A stretch of 64,000 bases of DNA. Origin: Halovivax gelatinilyticus (lineage in GTDB: Archaea; Halobacteriota; Halobacteria; Halobacteriales; Natrialbaceae). The notes below the pieces were generated by a model. The model did no database searches. It worked only from the letters and a program-made list of their open reading frames with translations, and had not been told where the DNA came from. The position numbers were made by a program, and so were the translations under genes. The DNA lies in the NCBI RefSeq assembly GCF_024300625.1, contig NZ_CP101322.1, positions 2,493,992 to 2,557,991 on the forward strand. Direction: 5' to 3'. Of the stretch, positions 6,010 to 59,568 are shown one piece after another (positions within the stretch are counted from its first letter, which is position 1; every line of letters starts with the position of its first letter).

Positions 6010-7398
6010 CTACTCGTCGAGTTTCTCGACCAGTTCCGAGGCGACGCCGGTGTAGCCGGCCGGGGTTAGCGCCCGAAGCTCCTCGCGGACCGCCTCGTCG
6101 ACGTCCAGCTCGGCAAAGAGATCGTGGAAGTCCTCGATGGTGACCTGCTGGCCCCGGGTGAGGTCCTTGACCCGTTCGTAGGCGTCGTCGCGACCTTCGC
6201 GCCGGAGGATGGTCTGGACCGCTTCGCCGATCACCGCCGGCGTCTCTGCGAGTTCGTCGTCCATCACCCGGTCTGTCGGCGTCACCTTCGAGAGGCCGTC
6301 GCGGCTCTTCGTGTAGCCGATCAGGCAGTGGGCGAACGCGGCGCCGATATTGCGCTTGACCGTCGAGTCGGAGAGGTCGCGCTGGAGGCGCGAGGTGGTG
6401 ACGTAGTCGGCCAGAAAGTGGAGGTCCGAGTTCGCCTTCGAGAGGTTGCCCTCGCTGTTTTCGAAGTCGATCGGGTTCACCTTGTGCGGCATCGTCGACG
6501 AACCGGTTTCGCCGGCGGCGGCCTCCTGGCCGAGGTACCGATCGGAGACGTAGAGCCACTCGTCCAGGTCGAGGTCGAGCAGAATTCGATTCGCACCGCG
6601 GAGTGCGTCGAACAGCGCCGCGAGATCGTCACACGGGTTGACCTGCGTGGTGAGCGGTTCGAAGTCGAGGCCGAGTTCGGTAACGAACGTTTCGGCGAAC
6701 GCAGACCAGTCGACGTCGGGGTAGGCGGCGTGGTGGGCGGCGTAGGTGCCCGAGGCCCCGCCGAGCTTGCCGCGGAGGTCGCCGGTCGCGGTCTCGACCC
6801 GATCGATCGCGCGTCCCAGCCGGGAGGCGTAGACGGCCATCTCCTTGCCGAACGTGGTCGGCGTCGCGGGCTGGCCGTGCGTCCGCGCGAGCATCGCTCG
6901 ATCCTGGTGCTCGCGAGCCTGGTCTCCGAGTTCGTCGCACACGTCGGTCAGGGCGGGCAGAATCACGTCGGTGACGGCGTCGCGGACGAGCAGTCGGTGG
7001 GCGAGGTTGTTGACGTCCTCGCTCGTCAGCCCGAAGTGGATCCACGGGACGGCGTCGCTCCCGTCCGGAAGCTGCAGGCGGAGGAAGTACTCGACGGCTT
7101 TCACGTCGTGGTTGGTCGCCTCGAACGGGCCGTGGCCGGTGGTCTCGATCTCCTTTACGATGGCCGCGTCGTCCGCGTCGAAGTCCTCGTATGCGGCCCG
7201 TAGCTCCTCACGCGTCCGCTCGTCGAGTTCGAGCGGTGTCGCCTCGAGGTCGGCCACTGCGATGAGGTATTCGACCTCGACGCGGACGCGTGCCCGCATG
7301 AGTCCGGCCTCACTGGCGTACGGTCGAAGCGGTTCCGTCCGATCGGCGTAGCGACCGTCGAGCGGGGAGACGGCGTACAGCGAATCCCTGTCTGTCAT
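6010..7398 (-). CDS. purB: Adenylosuccinate lyase
   Basis: A 462-residue fumarase/aspartase superfamily enzyme. It cleaves SAICAR to AICAR and adenylosuccinate to AMP, both releasing fumarate, in purine synthesis. The N-terminus YAVSPLDGRYADRTEPLRPY and the family signature GSSTMPHKVNPIDFENSEGN (about residues 297-316) identify PurB; ARTHGQPATPTTFGKEM (about 168) carries a catalytic histidine. It is divergent from the purN-AICAR transformylase fusion at 7552, whose product, made from AICAR, is the next pathway step, so the 150-base gap may hold shared regulation. Confidence 0.97.
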   Translation of the reverse strand: MTDRDSLYAVSPLDGRYADRTEPLRPYASEAGLMRARVRVEVEYLIAVADLEATPLELDERTREELRAAYEDFDADDAAIVKEIETTGHGPFEATNHDVKAVEYFLRLQLPDGSDAVPWIHFGLTSEDVNNLAHRLLVRDAVTDVILPALTDVCDELGDQAREHQDRAMLARTHGQPATPTTFGKEMAVYASRLGRAIDRVETATGDLRGKLGGASGTYAAHHAAYPDVDWSAFAETFVTELGLDFEPLTTQVNPCDDLAALFDALRGANRILLDLDLDEWLYVSDRYLGQEAAAGETGSSTMPHKVNPIDFENSEGNLSKANSDLHFLADYVTTSRLQRDLSDSTVKRNIGAAFAHCLIGYTKSRDGLSKVTPTDRVMDDELAETPAVIGEAVQTILRREGRDDAYERVKDLTRGQQVTIEDFHDLFAELDVDEAVREELRALTPAGYTGVASELVEKLDE

Positions 7399-7551
7399 GC
7401 CCGTGAGTCGTCTGCGAGCCCGAAAAAGCGTATCGAAAGGCCGAGCGCGAAACCTTCCGACGACCCCGACTGCGCCGACGACGGCTGATACCGGAGTGCA
7501 CGCACCGGCCGAATCAGAACCCCTTTGATTCGCCTCGGCGCAGTGTCGCCT

Positions 7552-9198
7552 ATGACGCGCATCGCCGGAATGGCGGGCAACCGGGGGCGAAACCTGATGA
7601 ACATCGCGGATCGGCGGCCGGGCGGGGCCGAGCTGTCGGTCGTACTAACCTACGACGCCGACGCGCCGATCCTGGCGTCGGCGGCCGAACGGGACGTTGC
7701 GACCGAGGTCGTTCCACTCGAAGACGGGATGGATCGACGCGACCACGAGCGGGCCGTCCTCGACGCGTTGTCGGGCTACGACGTCGACCTGGTCTGTCTC
7801 GACGGCTACATGCGGATCCTCTCGGAGACGTTTCTCGACGAGGCGCCGACGACGCTGAACGTTCACCCGTCGCTGCTGCCGGCGTTTCCCGGGATGGACG
7901 CCTGGGGCGACGCCATCGACGCCGGCGTCTCGGTGACGGGCTGTACCGTCCACGTGGTGACCGACGCGACGGACGACGACGGCGACGTGATCGAATCGGA
8001 GATCGACGCCGGGCCGATCGTCACCCAGGAGCCGGTTCCGATCTACGATGGTGACGACGTGGAGGCGCTCAAAGAGCGCGTCCTCTACGACGGCGAGTTC
8101 CGGGCCTACCCGCGAGCCGTCGAGTGGTTCGCACGCGACGCCGTCGACGTGGACCTTGAGGCGGGAACGGTCACCGTCGAGGCGGACGCGGCGAGTGCGG
8201 ACGGCGACCACGACGGTTTGCCCGCCCGTCGAATCGTCTCGAACGACCGGCTCGATACGCTTCGCTACGGCGAGAACCCACACCAAGATGCGGCGGTGTA
8301 CGCGGACCGAACCTGCGCGGAGGCGAGCGTCGTTCACGCCGAGCAGCTAAACGAGGGGGCGAAGGCGCTCTCGTACAACAACTACAACGACGCAGACGGC
8401 GCGTTGAACCTGATCAAGGAGTTCGACGAGCCAGCCGCGGCGGTCATCAAGCACACCAACCCGGCCGGCTGCGCCACGGCCGACAGCCTCGCCGAAGCCT
8501 ACGACCGCGCGCTCTCGACCGATCCGATGAGCGCGTTCGGCGGGATCGTCGCGATAAACCGTGAGTGCGACGCCGAGACGGCCGAGGCGATCACCGACTC
8601 GTTCAAGGAGGTCGTCGTCGCGCCCGGCTATTCCGACGACGCCCTGGACGTACTGTGTGCGAAGAAGAACCTCCGCGTACTGGACGTGGGGGCGTTCGAC
8701 TCGGGCGAGGGCGTCTACGCCGATCGATTCACCGAGAAACCGATCGTCGGCGGCCGACTCGTCCAGGAGCGAGACGGGCAGTCGATCGCGGTCGACGACC
8801 TGGAAGTCGTCACCGAACGCCAACCGACCGACGAGCAGTTAGAGACGATGGTCTTCGCCTGGCAAACCCTGAAACACGTCAAGTCGAACGGCATTCTCTT
8901 CGCGAAGGACACCGAGACCGTCGGCATCGGCATGGGACAGGTTTCGCGCGTCGACGCGGTTCGACTGGCGGCGATCAAAGCCGACGAGCACGCCGAGGGC
9001 AAGGACGCCGAGGGTGCCGTGATGGCGTCGGACGCCTTCTTCCCGTTCCCGGACGGGATCGAGGAGGCGGCGAAGGCCGGCGTCGAAGCGGTGGTTCAAC
9101 CCGGTGGCTCGAAGCGCGACGACCAGGTGATCGAGGCGGCGAACGAACACGAGATGGCGATGGCGTTTACGGGTCAACGGAGTTTCAGGCACGATTAG
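7552..9198 (+). CDS. purNH: Fused GAR formyltransferase / AICAR formyltransferase (PurN-PurH C-domain)
   Basis: This 548-residue protein joins two folate-dependent enzymes of purine synthesis. Residues 1 to about 200 are PurN-like: VCLDGYMRILS, NVHPSLLPAFPG (catalytic Asn-His) and ESEIDAGPIVTQE. Residues about 230-548 are the AICAR transformylase domain of PurH: RYGENPHQ, NYNDADGAL, VIKHTNPAGCA (catalytic Lys-His) and MSAFGG. The IMP cyclohydrolase domain of bacterial PurH is absent; archaea usually use PurO for that step. This fusion is known in haloarchaea. I start at the ATG at 7552; a TTG at 7525 is in frame but adds residues unrelated to the family. Confidence 0.93.
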   Translation: MTRIAGMAGNRGRNLMNIADRRPGGAELSVVLTYDADAPILASAAERDVATEVVPLEDGMDRRDHERAVLDALSGYDVDLVCLDGYMRILSETFLDEAPTTLNVHPSLLPAFPGMDAWGDAIDAGVSVTGCTVHVVTDATDDDGDVIESEIDAGPIVTQEPVPIYDGDDVEALKERVLYDGEFRAYPRAVEWFARDAVDVDLEAGTVTVEADAASADGDHDGLPARRIVSNDRLDTLRYGENPHQDAAVYADRTCAEASVVHAEQLNEGAKALSYNNYNDADGALNLIKEFDEPAAAVIKHTNPAGCATADSLAEAYDRALSTDPMSAFGGIVAINRECDAETAEAITDSFKEVVVAPGYSDDALDVLCAKKNLRVLDVGAFDSGEGVYADRFTEKPIVGGRLVQERDGQSIAVDDLEVVTERQPTDEQLETMVFAWQTLKHVKSNGILFAKDTETVGIGMGQVSRVDAVRLAAIKADEHAEGKDAEGAVMASDAFFPFPDGIEEAAKAGVEAVVQPGGSKRDDQVIEAANEHEMAMAFTGQRSFRHD

Positions 9199-20724: not shown

Positions 20725-20801
20725 GTCGCGTTCGCTAGGGGTTCGAAAATTGTACGACTCTGCTGGGCATGAGTTGAGAATCCTCTAGTCGAACTACTTT
20801 G

Positions 20802-21786
20802 ATGGGCCTTGTTTAGGCGCCTGAATTCATTGGTTTGAGCGGTCGAGCGCTAGTTCGACGTTTCTGACGGCACATTTCAGCACGAGCTCACGAAACTGCC
20901 CGAACCAGGTTCGAGCTCGGACGATCTCGCCGTATTTTCGTCGGAGCGCGAAAAACGTCGCTTCGATATTCGGTCGTTGATGGTACGTTGTATCATCGAG
21001 CAAGACATTGTTTGCGACGCCGTGCCAGCCGAATTCGCGGTGCTTGATCACCGGCGTAACACCCTCAGACCGCAATTTATGACGAAGTAGTTCCCAGTCG
21101 TAGCCTTTGTCGGCAGTCAGTATCGTCAATTTCACTAGGTTCCGCGTGAGCAGTTGCCACGCAATTTGAGAGTCGTGCGGTTGTTTCATCGAGCAATGAA
21201 TGTCGAGAATCACACCGGTCTCGCAGCCGATCAACGCCGTCGTTTTCACTGCTCTGAACGTGTAATTCGTTCGTTTGGCGAATTGCTGGCTCGCCGCGAC
21301 GCGATCCATCCCGGTTGCGTCGATTGCCTGAATTTCGCCGGTGTCATGCAATTGCGCCGATAGTCAGGGGAAATCGCGCCAGATCGGCATTTTCAGCGGC
21401 TGCATGCGCGCACAGACAGTCGTAATATCGGGCAATTCAGCGGGTTCTTGGTCTATAATTCGACCAATTCGCGGCATTTCTGAGAATACGTCGAGCAGCC
21501 GTCGATACGGCAAATCGAGGTAGGTTTTGAGGCCGTGGATCGTCACAATTACCCAGTCGGCGTAGCCGCCCTTACCTGGTTGAAACGCCAGCTCCGGCTG
21601 TCCAGCGACGGCTTTTTGGGCGAGCGAAACGACTTGTTCGGTGAAGCGGGTGATCTTCGTTTGCACAACCGAACCGTCCCGCTTCACTTCCTAGTACTTT
21701 CGACAAGTGGCAGCGTTGACTAGGACCCTAGGACTTACTAGTGACGACTCCTCCGTAGTGATCTCGGACATCTAAACAAGGCCCAT
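20802..21786 (-). mobile_element. IS5-family insertion sequence with intact inverted ends
   Basis: Both ends carry the exact 15-base inverted repeat ATGGGCCTTGTTTAG (20802-20816 and, reversed, 21772-21786). Between them lies one DDE transposase gene on the minus strand that is broken by a single stop. No convincing target-site duplication is seen at these borders. Size (about 985 bp) is typical for short IS5 elements. The intact ends suggest recent arrival, and the element could still be moved by a transposase acting in trans. Confidence 0.85.
20827..21687 (-). pseudogene. IS5-family DDE transposase interrupted by an in-frame TGA
   Basis: Two same-frame pieces, 21687-21364 and 21363-20827, are separated only by TGA at 21366-21364. 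The first piece (MKRDGSVVQTKITRFTEQVV...) is the IS5 N-terminal helix region. The second carries the DDE triad: IQAIDATGMDR, LTADKGYDWE and RPNIEATFFALRRKYGEI. No frameshift is present, so one base change (for example CGA or TGG to TGA) would explain the break. Probably inactive as a full protein unless the stop is read through. Confidence 0.88.
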
Positions 21787-21859
21787 TGTTGTAGCCTGTT
21801 TAAGAACGGTCGTGTTCAGATCCGCTGATTCCATGCAAATGCTAGCGATCCTAACTACT

Positions 21860-22440
21860 GGTCGACCGTTTCTAGTTATGCATGACTGAATTAGTTGAAA
21901 AACAAATACGTACATCGTTTGATTTCTCGAAAGACTCGTTCGACGCTATTTCGTTCACCGTGTCTTTCGTATGTGAACGAGAGTTTGTGACGTTGACAGG
22001 CGTATTGAAGCGAATAATCACCGTCGATGAGGCTGAATCTCTCATCGACGTCGTATTTTTCTCGAAGGTCTGCGAAGAATGTACTCACAATCACCTTGTT
22101 TCTGGTCGGTACGAGCGTTGTATACAACAATTCATTTTTAATGCGTATCGACCGCAGCGTACAGCCAGTATCGTTCACCGTTGAGTTGGATCACCGTTTC
22201 GTTGACCGCGACGTGATCCTGATATAGCCCTAATTGTCGGTGTCATTCTACCTTGTGAACCAGTTTGAACCGTCGATAGAGCCCGGTGAATGCTGAATAC
22301 GTCGAGAATCGAGACCGTGTTTGCGAGCCTGAGACCAGTCAGATTACGTTGAATGCCGAGTAATAATCAGTTGTGGAGTTGCTTCGCGCTCCACAAAATC
22401 CAGGTCAACTGGCCGATACTACCAGCAAAGTGGTCGGTTC
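21860..22440 (-). pseudogene. Decayed IS6-family transposase remnant
   Basis: On the minus strand, shifting frames recover typical haloarchaeal IS6 transposase segments in order: DLDFVERE (about 22410), LGIQRNLTGLRLANTVSILD (about 22360-22300), DHVAVNETVIQLNGERYWLY (about 22220-22160), NELLYTTLVPTRNKVIVSTF, then RHGERNSVERVFREIKR and FSHA near 21870. At least two frameshifts and internal stops break it, so it is old. The 95-residue open piece at 21891-22178 is only a fragment, and the opposite-strand frame is a shadow. Confidence 0.82.
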
Positions 22441-22532
22441 CTGCTATTATACTCGAAACCGCTACCGCCTCACTCCTTCAAAATCCTATTTGATCACCGC
22501 CATTCCAACGGACGAAAACAGCTTTTATAGAT

Positions 22533-22928
22533 TTATAACCGACCAAGTCTGGAGCGAATCAACCGGGGCACCCCAGTCTCAAAGTGTGCATATTTGCTGG
22601 CGAGGTATACCAGCAGAACCATACTAGTAAACACTCCATATGCATTTGCCTCTAACAGTCTGAGCGACATATCCAGTATTAGAGCCAACATTCCCAACGC
22701 CCAAGCCCATGTTTGTAGCAACCAAAGTCCGTATACTATACCGAATATGATCAAACAAAACACCAGATATCCCACTCCAAGCACAATATTGTTCCCTTCG
22801 CCGGCGAGAAGGAGAAGAACTGCGTTATATAGGATCCACCCACCACCTATGATGAAGAGTATGCAAAGCAATTTGATCCCGAGCGGTGTTTTTACGGGTT
22901 GGGTTGGTGAGATGCTTGTGTATGTCAT
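22533..22928 (-). CDS. Small four-helix membrane protein, island gene
   Basis: A 131-residue protein with about four hydrophobic segments: IKLLCILFIIGGGWILYNAV, NNIVLGVGYLVFCLIIFGIV, TWAWALGMLALILDMSLRLL and VFTSMVLLVYLASKYAH. It starts 15 bases after the stop of the exported cysteine-rich protein on the same strand, so the two are almost certainly co-transcribed. Codon use is AT-richer than in the rest of the window. It could be an immunity, anchoring or export partner for the upstream product. No family recognised. Confidence 0.75.
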   Translation of the reverse strand: MTYTSISPTQPVKTPLGIKLLCILFIIGGGWILYNAVLLLLAGEGNNIVLGVGYLVFCLIIFGIVYGLWLLQTWAWALGMLALILDMSLRLLEANAYGVFTSMVLLVYLASKYAHFETGVPRLIRSRLGRL

Positions 22929-22943
22929 GTAAATATCAAAAAA

Positions 22944-24026
22944 CTATATTCTAATATATGTTGCTGTGTCGTCCGAGTGGTGATCTTGTGGTGCTATGGG
23001 GTATTTCGAAGGGTTCTTTCGGATTTCACCAAACTCAACCCGCTGTAATCCTTTGTTGTTCAGTTGAGATTCCGTCATTGAAATGTAGTCCTCTGGATTG
23101 TTGTTCGGTGCCTGCACAGTTAACGAGGTGTTCGTCCCCCAATTACCTTCGAGTCCTCCTTCTGTGACATTAACTGTTACCGTTTGCCCTGGATCCATCT
23201 GTTGCAAACTGACACGTGCCCAAGTTGAGAACTCACCACCGATATTAAGGTCATAATTAAAATTAATAGACGTGCCATGACCAGGATCATTTGTAAGCAT
23301 ATTATGCATACTGCCGAGATATTCACCAGTATCCACTCCAGCACCTAAAAACGGCACCCAACCAAGAATGTATTCCGCTGTTCTACCAGCGACATTGGAT
23401 ACGTCGTAGTTCTGATATTGCGTCAGATCCTCAGTAGCGCCAACCCAGTCTTCTTCGTCATAGATATTGGTGTAGGTATATAGGTCTGCTGGCTCCGGTC
23501 CGATGGACGCAGTAGTGCTATACTCCGTTAGCCACGTCCCCGGATCACCAGTATCTTCATGAACCATCGATACCCCACTATGGATTATGAAATCAACCGC
23601 CCAGTGCGGTGATTGCCCTTCTATCGGATACCAGCCATAATTCCACGCGAGCAGTGTTCCTACGTTGACTTCGTATCGATTCCCGGCCAAGAACTCACTC
23701 CTTGTCATACTATCCATATCGACGAGTGGAGATTCGTAACAACATTCTCTCGTGTACCACCCATCATATTGACAGTTCCCTTCATCCCAGCACGCGTCAA
23801 CGGTGTTGACTTCAGAATCTTCTCTAAATTCCATCTTCGTCGGACAGAAAGGGTCGTTGTATTCCCATTGACCGCATTCAGTGGAAGATTCTTCGCGGAT
23901 AAATTGTTGTGAGTTTGTTTCGGAGGCGGTAACCATTCCAATGATTCCAATAGCAACTCCGCTCGAAGCGACCGAGTTAAGTACGGCTCGTCTACTGGGA
24001 GACTGCTGGAAATTTTTACCCTCCAT
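22944..24026 (-). CDS. Tat-exported cysteine-rich protein, unknown function (island gene)
   Basis: A 360-residue protein. Residues 11-35 form a twin-arginine signal (SRRAVLNSVASSGVAIGIIG). All six cysteines fall in residues 51-96 (C51, C61, C79, C85, C95, C96), just after the leader, which suggests a disulfide-bonded domain, unusual in haloarchaea. The remainder is rich in Trp, Tyr, Asn and Thr and looks like a beta-rich surface domain; residues about 210-240 (AEYILGWVPFLGAGVDTGEY) are weakly hydrophobic. A TATA-like ttttatc (about 24047) lies about 25 bases before the start. AT-rich codon use and flanking insertion-sequence remains point to horizontal transfer. I know no family for it. Confidence 0.78.
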   Translation of the reverse strand: MEGKNFQQSPSRRAVLNSVASSGVAIGIIGMVTASETNSQQFIREESSTECGQWEYNDPFCPTKMEFREDSEVNTVDACWDEGNCQYDGWYTRECCYESPLVDMDSMTRSEFLAGNRYEVNVGTLLAWNYGWYPIEGQSPHWAVDFIIHSGVSMVHEDTGDPGTWLTEYSTTASIGPEPADLYTYTNIYDEEDWVGATEDLTQYQNYDVSNVAGRTAEYILGWVPFLGAGVDTGEYLGSMHNMLTNDPGHGTSINFNYDLNIGGEFSTWARVSLQQMDPGQTVTVNVTEGGLEGNWGTNTSLTVQAPNNNPEDYISMTESQLNNKGLQRVEFGEIRKNPSKYPIAPQDHHSDDTATYIRI

Positions 24027-24300
24027 ATCTTGTAGTTGTCATGCTAGGTGATAAAACCTTCTTTGATACTAATCATAGTATTCTCTAATGCATCTGTTTG
24101 TGCGGGTTACAAATATAGTGGGAAACACATAGACAAATCGCCGAAAGACGTACAACTGTTTTACAAACACTCCAATCAAAACCAATATGGTGAATATCCA
24201 TTTCTTGGGGCGCTTCTATACATCTCTAATAACACATATATAATTTTGTATATTTATATTATTAGAATTATGGAGTAGTGGTGGAGGTCATAAGGTGTCC
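24027..24300. other. AT-rich spacer, no gene recognised
   Basis: Apart from the promoter of the gene at 24026, this stretch is strikingly AT-rich (runs such as tatataattttgtatattt near 24235). Open frames on the plus strand have no protein-like features. It is consistent with foreign island DNA. Confidence 0.6.
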
Positions 24301-24607
24301 ATGTCCAAATCTCTCGCTTCACCGGGACAGTCGTGACGTTGGCAAAAAATTGTTGGTGGCCGTGGCGAAGTCGCCGCCCCGTAGAGTGGCGGCGGATTCG
24401 CCGACCTCGCGGTCGTTTTGCACTACTATCCCCGGATTTACCTGGAGAAACCCTACGGCGAAGCGCTCAATCTGCTGAGTGAAACGCCACAAATACTGGC
24501 CGAGATCAACCTTGAGAAGGTTGATCTCTCCGATCACTCGACGCTAGTGAAGCCGTTTGAAAAATCAAGATGGCGGTCTGGCGTGTATTACACCGTTCTC
24601 AGCCAAT
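24301..24607 (+). pseudogene. Remnant of a second IS5-family transposase (N-terminal part)
   Basis: From the ATG at 24301 one frame gives MSKSLASPGQS, a TGA at 24334, RWQKIVGGRGEVAAP, a TAG at 24382, then GGGFADLAVV and IYLEKPYGEALNLLSETPQI and DHSTLVKPFEKS. A further frameshift restores IKMAVWRVLHRSQP. These are the N-terminal helices of an IS5 transposase of a different subgroup from the one at 20.8 kb. The catalytic domain is missing. Two stops, a shift and a deletion make this an old fossil at the other edge of the island. Confidence 0.82.
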
Positions 24608-24811
24608 AATATCATACCATTTAAATATAAGAAATATCATGGCTCCAAAGGACCGACTCTAACAGATAGGTACCAATCCGGACCCGTAATCCGATCACCA
24701 TCTCAATTTAACGAATTCCGCCTCGTCATCCATCGGTTCCACGACCTGATTTGGGTTTCACTCTCTGGTGATTAATTATCCGACTACTAGGAATTCGTTG
24801 GTTACGTCCAC

Positions 24812-58144: not shown

Positions 58145-58576
58145 ATGCCTGGGGCGAATACGAAGTCGGAACACTCTGGTCAAACGACGAGTGAAGTTTA
58201 TCGAACCGTCGCTTTTGCGAGCGTTACCATCGCGCTAATTGGGCTACTCGGTGGCGCGGCAACCGGCTATTTCCTTTCAGGAGCGGTCGTCTATGTTGCA
58301 GGCATGTGGATCGCCGTCGGCGTTGCACTTTTCGAGTGGCGTTCATCCCAAGGTGATGGTGCGGATGGGCCTCACGAAGTCGCGTTCGAACGGGCTAGTT
58401 ACTGGACGGTCGTGACGATACTCGTGGTGACCGCAACGCTGTTCCCGCCAGTAACTCTCCTAGCGGCCGGAGATTGGATCGGTACTGTCCCTGGATTCCG
58501 TTTCATTTTGCTTACACAGTCTACACTCATCCTCTTTTTTACTGTACTCTACGTAATATTCCGAGTGGAAACGTAG
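58145..58576 (+). CDS. Four-helix membrane protein
   Basis: A 143-residue protein with about four hydrophobic segments: VAFASVTIALIGLLGGAATG, GAVVYVAGMWIAVGVALFEW, YWTVVTILVVTATLFPPVTL and ILLTQSTLILFFTVLYVIFR. It starts 127 bases after RaSEA and converges on the Tat-exported gene at 59568-58657, with 80 bases between stops. Codon use is AT-richer than neighbours. No family recognised. Confidence 0.7.
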   Translation: MPGANTKSEHSGQTTSEVYRTVAFASVTIALIGLLGGAATGYFLSGAVVYVAGMWIAVGVALFEWRSSQGDGADGPHEVAFERASYWTVVTILVVTATLFPPVTLLAAGDWIGTVPGFRFILLTQSTLILFFTVLYVIFRVET

Positions 58577-58656
58577 ACATCTGGATACTCGGCATCGTAT
58601 CGACAGGACGAATGCCGATTGAAAAAACGGTGATGATCAGCAGCGACCGAAACTGC

Positions 58657-59568
58657 TCAGGCTCCTTGGATTGTGATGTTCTCGTAGTTGATGCCCCATT
58701 GACCGACATCGTGTTCCATATCTACGCTCGCTTGTGCCAGACCCAAGGCACCAATAGCACACCCCGACGTCAGGATGAAACGGTGGGTGTGATCCGGATC
58801 AACGTTCTGCAGGGTAATCTGTTCGCTGAAGCTTTGATCCCGATCGTGGCTGAAGTTCCCTGAATCTTCGAAGTTTACGAATGAACCGGAATCGACGATT
58901 CGCGATGTCGGGTCAGTTTCGCTCTCTTCTACTCGGTCAATCGCGTATCCGAGATCGTAGCTCGCACCGGACCCGCTGAGTGCTACGAGGAGACCGCTAA
59001 CGCCGGCCCCGGCGCCGATTGCAACGACGACTGGCGGCGCTTGCGGTTCAAACTCGTCTCCGTCGACGTAAGTACGCGTGGATGTTCCTGATGTTTTGGC
59101 GACCGGTTCTGTCGCCGCGTCATCACGTGTTTCTTCCTCGAAAGGGTTTATGCTCCTTCCGGACGCCTCGACTTTGAGATCAAAGTCAAGGGATATCTCG
59201 ACTTCGTCGACATCGTTTGCAATGTCGAAATACTGCCACGCTGCAGCTGCCCGGACTGTTTCACTGCGGAACATTCTTCCCCCTGTGTAGAGGTTCACGC
59301 GTTTGCCGGTGTCGCCGACGATGGCTGTCGTATTGCCACCACCGGATTCGGCGATCGTGTATCCGTGGAAATTGTGGTAGCTGACCGCTCCACTCTGACC
59401 GACCTCGCGGATCTGATTTCCGCCCGAGTTAACCGATGCGGGGAATTCGAATTCGGCTAGCCCGCCACTATTGGGGTCTGGGCTGGCAGATCCAGTTCCA
59501 AAACTCGATGCACCTAAGACGCCAACAGTGCTTAATGCGGCGCCCTTCGTGAATGTTCTTCGATCCAT
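58657..59568 (-). CDS. Tat-exported protein, unknown function
   Basis: A 303-residue protein starting MDRRTFTKGAALSTVGVLGA, a twin-arginine leader ending near SASP. The mature part is Gly/Ser/Asn-rich and beta-like (AEFEFPASVNSGGNQIREVG, SYHNFHGYTIAESGGGNTTA). Residues about 175-200 (PPVVVAIGAGAGVSGLLVAL) are hydrophobic and could insert in or cross a membrane. It ends WGINYENITIQGA. Codon use is less GC-rich than the chromosome average. Convergent with the small membrane protein at 58145. Unknown. Confidence 0.72.
   Translation of the reverse strand: MDRRTFTKGAALSTVGVLGASSFGTGSASPDPNSGGLAEFEFPASVNSGGNQIREVGQSGAVSYHNFHGYTIAESGGGNTTAIVGDTGKRVNLYTGGRMFRSETVRAAAAWQYFDIANDVDEVEISLDFDLKVEASGRSINPFEEETRDDAATEPVAKTSGTSTRTYVDGDEFEPQAPPVVVAIGAGAGVSGLLVALSGSGASYDLGYAIDRVEESETDPTSRIVDSGSFVNFEDSGNFSHDRDQSFSEQITLQNVDPDHTHRFILTSGCAIGALGLAQASVDMEHDVGQWGINYENITIQGA

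What the first reader, a model, noticed from the sequence alone, without database searches (positions are those of the whole stretch)
22533..24026. Cysteine-rich Tat-exported protein paired with a small membrane protein, inside an insertion-sequence island
Two co-directional genes 15 bases apart encode a 360-residue Tat-exported protein whose six cysteines all fall in residues 51-96, and a 131-residue four-helix membrane protein. They are AT-richer than the host and lie between decayed transposases at 21.9-22.4 and 24.3-24.6 kb. Secreted effector plus membrane immunity or anchor is one reading, as with halocins and their immunity proteins. No family was recognised.
Basis: partly seen in the sequence, partly recalled or inferred. 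Interest (0 to 1): 0.65.

Follow-up and report, generated by a model that had tools for sequence, protein, structure and literature searches.

The report
Halocin H4-like toxin with membrane partner
A salt-loving archaeon carries, on a small foreign DNA insert, a secreted protein that is a distant relative of the known archaeal antibiotic protein halocin H4; relatives of it mostly sit beside a small membrane-anchored protein, as one would expect of a toxin stored next to its own antidote.

Summary
In detail: 22944-24026(-) encodes a 360-aa twin-arginine exported protein with all six cysteines at residues 51-96, and 22533-22928(-), 15 bases downstream, a 131-aa multi-helix membrane protein. Both lie in a 46-47% GC block (host 64%) that is an insertion: in all four congeneric genomes the flanking genes are 40-68 bp apart. 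The block carries an IS5-family element and relics of an IS6 and another IS5 element.
"No family recognised" is wrong. The 360-aa protein belongs to the halocin H4 superfamily: a 10-member profile without H4 finds H4 at E=2e-18, and orthologues 53% identical to H4 turn up in the same archaeal family. It is a subtype with an extra N-terminal six-cysteine module.
The exact pair is not conserved: no homologue has this membrane protein next door, and its relatives lie elsewhere. But 16 of 20 superfamily members have some small membrane-anchored neighbour (13 lipoproteins, 3 membrane proteins) within 200 bp, versus 5 of 70 background genes. The effector/immunity reading is therefore partly supported, with the partner interchangeable. 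Killing, protease activation and immunity are inferred. New variant of a known kind.

The parts
22944..24026 (-). 360-aa Tat-exported precursor, halocin H4 superfamily (candidate pro-halocin)
   Evidence: ORF; profile of 10 homologues without H4 hits H4 at E=2.3e-18 and reciprocal H4-group profile hits this family; hhalign 99.3%
23739..23876 (-). Six-cysteine module, residues 51-96; present only in this protein and L011-L014
   Evidence: cysteine positions; alignments A3 and A1
22998..23735 (-). Superfamily-conserved region, residues 98-343: predicted beta-sandwich core plus conserved APxxxP and C-terminal segment
   Evidence: alignments; AlphaFold2 model, pLDDT about 70-90 over most of 101-185 and 251-335
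23295..23402 (-). Moderately hydrophobic helical insert, residues 209-244 (VPFLGAGVDTGEYLG), aligned to the hydrophobic stretch of halocin H4
   Evidence: alignments; hydropathy peaks; low-confidence helices
22533..22928 (-). 131-aa membrane protein, candidate immunity partner; member of a widespread, uncharacterised haloarchaeal small membrane protein family
   Evidence: ORF; homologues at E<1e-3 in about 30 genomes of 391
20725..24811 (.). Inserted AT-rich island between genes that are adjacent in all four congeneric genomes
   Evidence: flank comparison; GC profile
20802..21786 (-). IS5-family element with 28-nt terminal inverted repeats; transposase split into two ORFs (20827-21351, 21364-21687)
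21891..22178 (-). Relic of IS6-family transposase
   Evidence: 73% identity to annotated IS6 transposase
24300..24586 (.). Relic of a second IS5-family transposase
   Evidence: 82% DNA identity to annotated IS5 transposase

Best explanation
This is a horizontally acquired halocin locus. The 360-aa protein is a pro-halocin of the halocin H4 superfamily. It is exported by the Tat pathway, its N-terminal six-cysteine module is probably disulphide-bonded and acts as a targeting or pro-domain, and an extracellular subtilisin (halolysin) then frees the conserved C-terminal beta-rich part with its hydrophobic helical insert. That part perforates the envelope of susceptible haloarchaea. The 131-aa membrane protein, probably cotranscribed 15 bases downstream, protects the producer from within its own membrane, the role that small lipoproteins would play at most other loci of the superfamily. 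Shown: homology to H4, conserved cysteines, insertion, enrichment of membrane-anchored neighbours; predicted from sequence: the export signal. Inferred: killing, proteolytic activation, perforation, immunity.
For: H4 homology; H4 orthologues L129 and L130 at 53% identity in genomes of the same family; H4 sequence anchored at four points by published primers. Partner enrichment 16/20 vs 5/70, Fisher 3.5e-10; collapsed to 14 clusters 10/14, p=8e-7, with the partner on varying sides and strands. Halolysin HlyR4 cleaves H4 and frees an active C-terminal fragment (PMC12893001). Loss of halH4 removes surface pinholes and DNA uptake (PMC6759562). The own genome has about 14 subtilisin genes; at least L148-L151 carry twin-arginine N termini. 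Island is an insertion.
Against: The exact pair occurs only here; L011, the closest homologue, has no partner; L017 and L018 neither, and L014's is 560 bp away. The membrane protein's relatives are general haloarchaeal proteins not next to halocins. Similarity of this protein to H4 is only visible with profiles (no direct BLASTP hit at E<1e-2). The hydrophobic insert is weaker here (peak 0.81) than in H4 (1.37). No activity data.
Confidence: 0.55

Rival explanations
1. The secreted protein is a halocin H4-type toxin, but the membrane gene is an unrelated neighbour captured when the island formed; immunity is encoded elsewhere or is not needed.
For: L011 has no partner; the membrane protein belongs to a widespread family that is not near halocins elsewhere; the island is made of fragments.
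Against: 15-base spacing on the same strand; superfamily-wide enrichment of membrane-anchored neighbours; the membrane gene shares the low GC of the toxin gene.
Confidence: 0.25
2. The protein acts on the producer's own or kin cells, opening the envelope for DNA uptake rather than killing rivals, with the membrane partner as a docking or uptake component.
For: Deletion of halH4 abolished DNA uptake and smoothed the cell surface in Haloferax mediterranei (PMC6759562).
Against: H4 fragments are antimicrobial (PMC12893001); partners are mostly unrelated lipoproteins, not one conserved uptake protein.
Confidence: 0.1
3. A cell-surface structural or adhesive beta-sandwich protein, not a toxin.
For: The model matches Ig-like adhesin domains as well as pore-forming toxins at tied Z about 10-11.
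Against: Sequence homology to a known halocin; patchy distribution in a minority of haloarchaeal genomes, roughly 3-4%; mobile context.
Confidence: 0.1

Closest known systems
Halocin H4 (HalH4, HFX_5264, Haloferax mediterranei)
   Same: Tat-exported protein of about 360 aa; homologous over the mature part (H4 residues 56-303), including the DWVG motif, the hydrophobic stretch, the AP motif and the segment ending EEGIxRV.
   Different: Similarity visible only with profiles; extra N-terminal six-cysteine module absent from H4; weaker hydrophobic stretch; partner is a membrane protein, while H4 orthologues L129 and L130 have a convergent lipoprotein gene.
Halocin C8 (ProC8/HalI)
   Same: Exported haloarchaeal precursor with a cysteine-rich part (from memory; the C8 self-immunity paper is cited in PMC12893001).
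   Different: C8 is the cysteine-rich C-terminal peptide and its own N-terminal part is the immunity protein; here cysteines are N-terminal and the partner is a separate gene. A sequence link was not specifically tested.
Staphylococcal alpha-haemolysin/leukocidin beta-sandwich
   Same: Predicted beta-sandwich of residues 98-308 with an insert between strands; VIA Z up to 10.9 over 142 residues.
   Different: Tied with unrelated Ig-like adhesins; Foldseek TM only 0.1-0.2; no sequence match in PDB; insert predicted helical and of low confidence.

Membership tests
Halocin H4 superfamily | Sequence homology to HalH4 over the mature protein | tested here: met
   10-member profile without H4: E=2.3e-18; reciprocal H4-group profile finds L011 at 2.5e-8 and the window protein at 2.9e-4; hhalign 98.4-99.3%; 54.7 bits over H4 residues 56-303 without the signal.
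Halocin H4 superfamily | Twin-arginine export signal | tested here: met
   SRRAVL motif followed by a hydrophobic stretch; RR aligned in nearly all members.
Halocin H4 superfamily | Release of an active C-terminal fragment by halolysin | not testable with these tools
   Known for H4 (PMC12893001); the own genome has about 14 subtilisins; cleavage not tested.
Halocin H4 superfamily | Inhibits growth of other haloarchaea | not testable with these tools
   Needs an inhibition assay.
Halocin C8 family | Cysteine-rich peptide at the C terminus of the precursor | tested here: not met
   All six cysteines lie in residues 51-96 of 360.
Toxin-immunity pair | Toxin homologues regularly adjacent to a membrane-anchored small protein | tested here: met
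   16/20 within 200 bp vs 5/70 background, Fisher 3.5e-10; 10/14 after collapsing relatives.
Toxin-immunity pair | The same partner family conserved next to this toxin | tested here: not met
   No homologue has this membrane protein next to it; partners fall into several unrelated types.
Toxin-immunity pair | Partner protects against the toxin | not testable with these tools
   Needs expression and challenge.
Polymorphic toxin | Conserved N-terminal part with variable C-terminal toxin domain | tested here: not met
   The C-terminal part is conserved and the N-terminal module varies.
Leukocidin/alpha-haemolysin superfamily | Cap beta-sandwich fold with prestem | tested here: inconclusive
   VIA Z 10.9 but tied with adhesins; model pLDDT 60, pTM 0.62.

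The most novel reading that the evidence does not exclude
Halocin H4 is one branch of a larger haloarchaeal toxin superfamily built as two-gene modules: a Tat-exported beta-rich pro-toxin beside an interchangeable membrane-anchored immunity protein. At least two unrelated lipoprotein types and several unrelated small membrane proteins fill the second slot. The locus here is a subtype with a six-cysteine module and a polytopic membrane immunity protein.
Probability: 0.5. Interest if true: 0.72.

Novelty: new variant of a known kind. Interest (0 to 1): 0.55.

Why it matters
I found no account of how halocin H4 producers protect themselves in the papers I could read. If the membrane-anchored neighbours are immunity proteins, self-protection in this halocin superfamily can be tested directly, gene by gene, including on the lipoprotein neighbours of close H4 orthologues. 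It would also show how such toxins can move on insertion-sequence islands between species with an antidote attached. Whether the family has been catalogued before (for example in the 2019 mBio survey of archaeal toxins and halocins, which is not held) could not be checked.

Tried and rejected
Pfam, NCBIfam, PADLOC and PHROGs gave no family for either protein (AlaE at 11 bits against a cut-off of 25 is noise). Viral contigs and plasmids gave no homologue of the 360-aa protein, so a viral or plasmid-borne origin is not shown. An H4 search of plasmids and of 146 genomes of G041's family did not find the Haloferax mediterranei gene itself; the H4 sequence is from memory and was checked against published primers instead. 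Membrane-protein relatives were followed in 33 loci to look for hidden halocins: none. Foldseek on both models gave TM about 0.1-0.26 to the query, with adhesins and toxins mixed; I do not claim a pore-forming fold. A first background count for neighbours was biased by loci chosen for the membrane protein and was replaced. The many weak hits are shared Tat signals, not relatives. The 2019 mBio survey of archaeal toxins, the 1997 halH4 paper and the 2024 HalH4-HlyR4 paper are not held.

Full report
Observation. Both genes are present as described. The 360-aa product has a twin-arginine N terminus and six cysteines at 51, 61, 79, 85, 95 and 96; the four closest homologues (L011-L014) keep all six. 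The 131-aa gene follows after 15 bases on the same strand. GC is 0.46-0.47 against 0.64 for the window.

Island. The block 20725-24811 is an insertion. In four congeneric genomes the homologues of the two flanking genes are convergent and 40-68 bp apart. Within it are an IS5-family element with 28-nt inverted ends at 20802-21786 and a split transposase, an IS6 transposase relic and a second IS5 relic. The closest homologue of the 360-aa gene, in G043 of the same genus (52% identity, GC 0.60), sits at a different chromosomal site between GC-rich genes, so the window copy is not at a shared ancestral place. The host belongs to the same GTDB family as Natrialba (G163 equals Natrialba hulunbeirensis).

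Family. No curated library recognises the protein. Profile searches of whole genomes found about 20 relatives in haloarchaea, in roughly 3-4% of the genomes searched. A profile of the first members hit my recalled sequence of halocin H4 at 54.7 bits over H4 residues 56-303. Because that sequence came from memory, I checked it against the halH4 primers printed in PMC6759562: all four encode the expected peptides MSKDRD, YTDFAL, DEMVYV and QRSRKQ at the right places. With a background of 655 called proteins and 1500 shuffles, a 10-member profile without H4 found H4 at E=2.3e-18. The reciprocal H4-group profile found the family back, the window protein itself at 2.9e-4, and hhalign gave 98-99%. 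L129 and L130 are clear H4 orthologues (53% identity), and L050, L052 and L128 are 30-31%. In the tree H4 groups with L129 and L130; the window protein groups with L011, L012 and L013. Membership in the H4 superfamily is therefore shown; membership in the H4 clade is not.

Anatomy. The part shared with H4 is residues 98-343 or so. AlphaFold2 predicts a beta-sandwich there (mean pLDDT about 80 over most of residues 101-185 and 251-335) interrupted by a poorly predicted helical insert at 199-247. That insert aligns with the hydrophobic stretch of H4 but is less hydrophobic here. The structural matches (VIA Z up to 10.9) are mostly pore-forming toxins of the haemolysin family but tie with Ig-like adhesins, so they decide nothing. 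The six-cysteine module is confined to this subfamily.

Partner. The 131-aa membrane protein has relatives in about 30 of 391 genomes at E<1e-3; 33 of their neighbourhoods hold no halocin relative. None of the 360-aa protein's homologues has it next door. The strict claim of a conserved pair fails. But the neighbourhoods share something more general: of 20 members with usable flanks, 13 have a lipoprotein of 73-181 aa (one of them decayed) and 3 a small multi-helix membrane protein within 200 bp, against 5 of 70 background genes (Fisher 3.5e-10). Collapsing close relatives and counting a mixed cluster as negative leaves 10 of 14 (p=8e-7). The partner lies downstream, convergent, divergent or upstream, so adjacency survives rearrangement. 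The lipoproteins fall into at least two unrelated types (groups A, B and L133 alike; D with E; C apart; group comparisons, L133 by eye). Limits: gene calling was mechanical, lipoboxes were pattern-based, background genes came from the same loci, and members are related.

Function. HlyR4 cleaves H4 and frees the active C-terminal fragment (PMC12893001); loss of halH4 removes surface pinholes and DNA uptake (PMC6759562). I infer by homology that this protein is an exported precursor whose C-terminal part attacks envelopes, activated by one of the host's many subtilisins, and that the membrane protein gives self-protection. The first step is likely, the second plausible, the third is the least certain. 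A TATA-like TTTTATC at 24050-24056, 24-30 bases upstream of the start, would suit a leaderless transcript; this is by eye only.

Verdict. A real and recognisable halocin-type locus on a mobile island. The part that deserves follow-up is the superfamily-wide association with membrane-anchored neighbours.

Noticed in passing
L049:1195-2268 and 6893-8020; L127:6590-7705 (same genome as the window): Three further halocin H4-superfamily paralogues in the same chromosome, each followed within 50 bp by a lipoprotein gene of one family; two loci carry tandem lipoprotein copies and one has a decayed copy.
   Followed up: partly
L127:1615-4560: A 981-aa Tat-exported subtilisin lies just beyond the lipoprotein genes of the L127 halocin paralogue, with one gene between; it could be a dedicated activating protease.
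   Followed up: no
L131:447-1238: A halocin H4 orthologue in G263 is broken by an in-frame stop and has no lipoprotein neighbour in the stretch read.
   Followed up: no
window 58145-59568: Another AT-rich block: a 303-aa Tat-exported protein convergent, 81 bp apart, with a 143-aa membrane protein; not a halocin H4 relative by these profiles.
   Followed up: no
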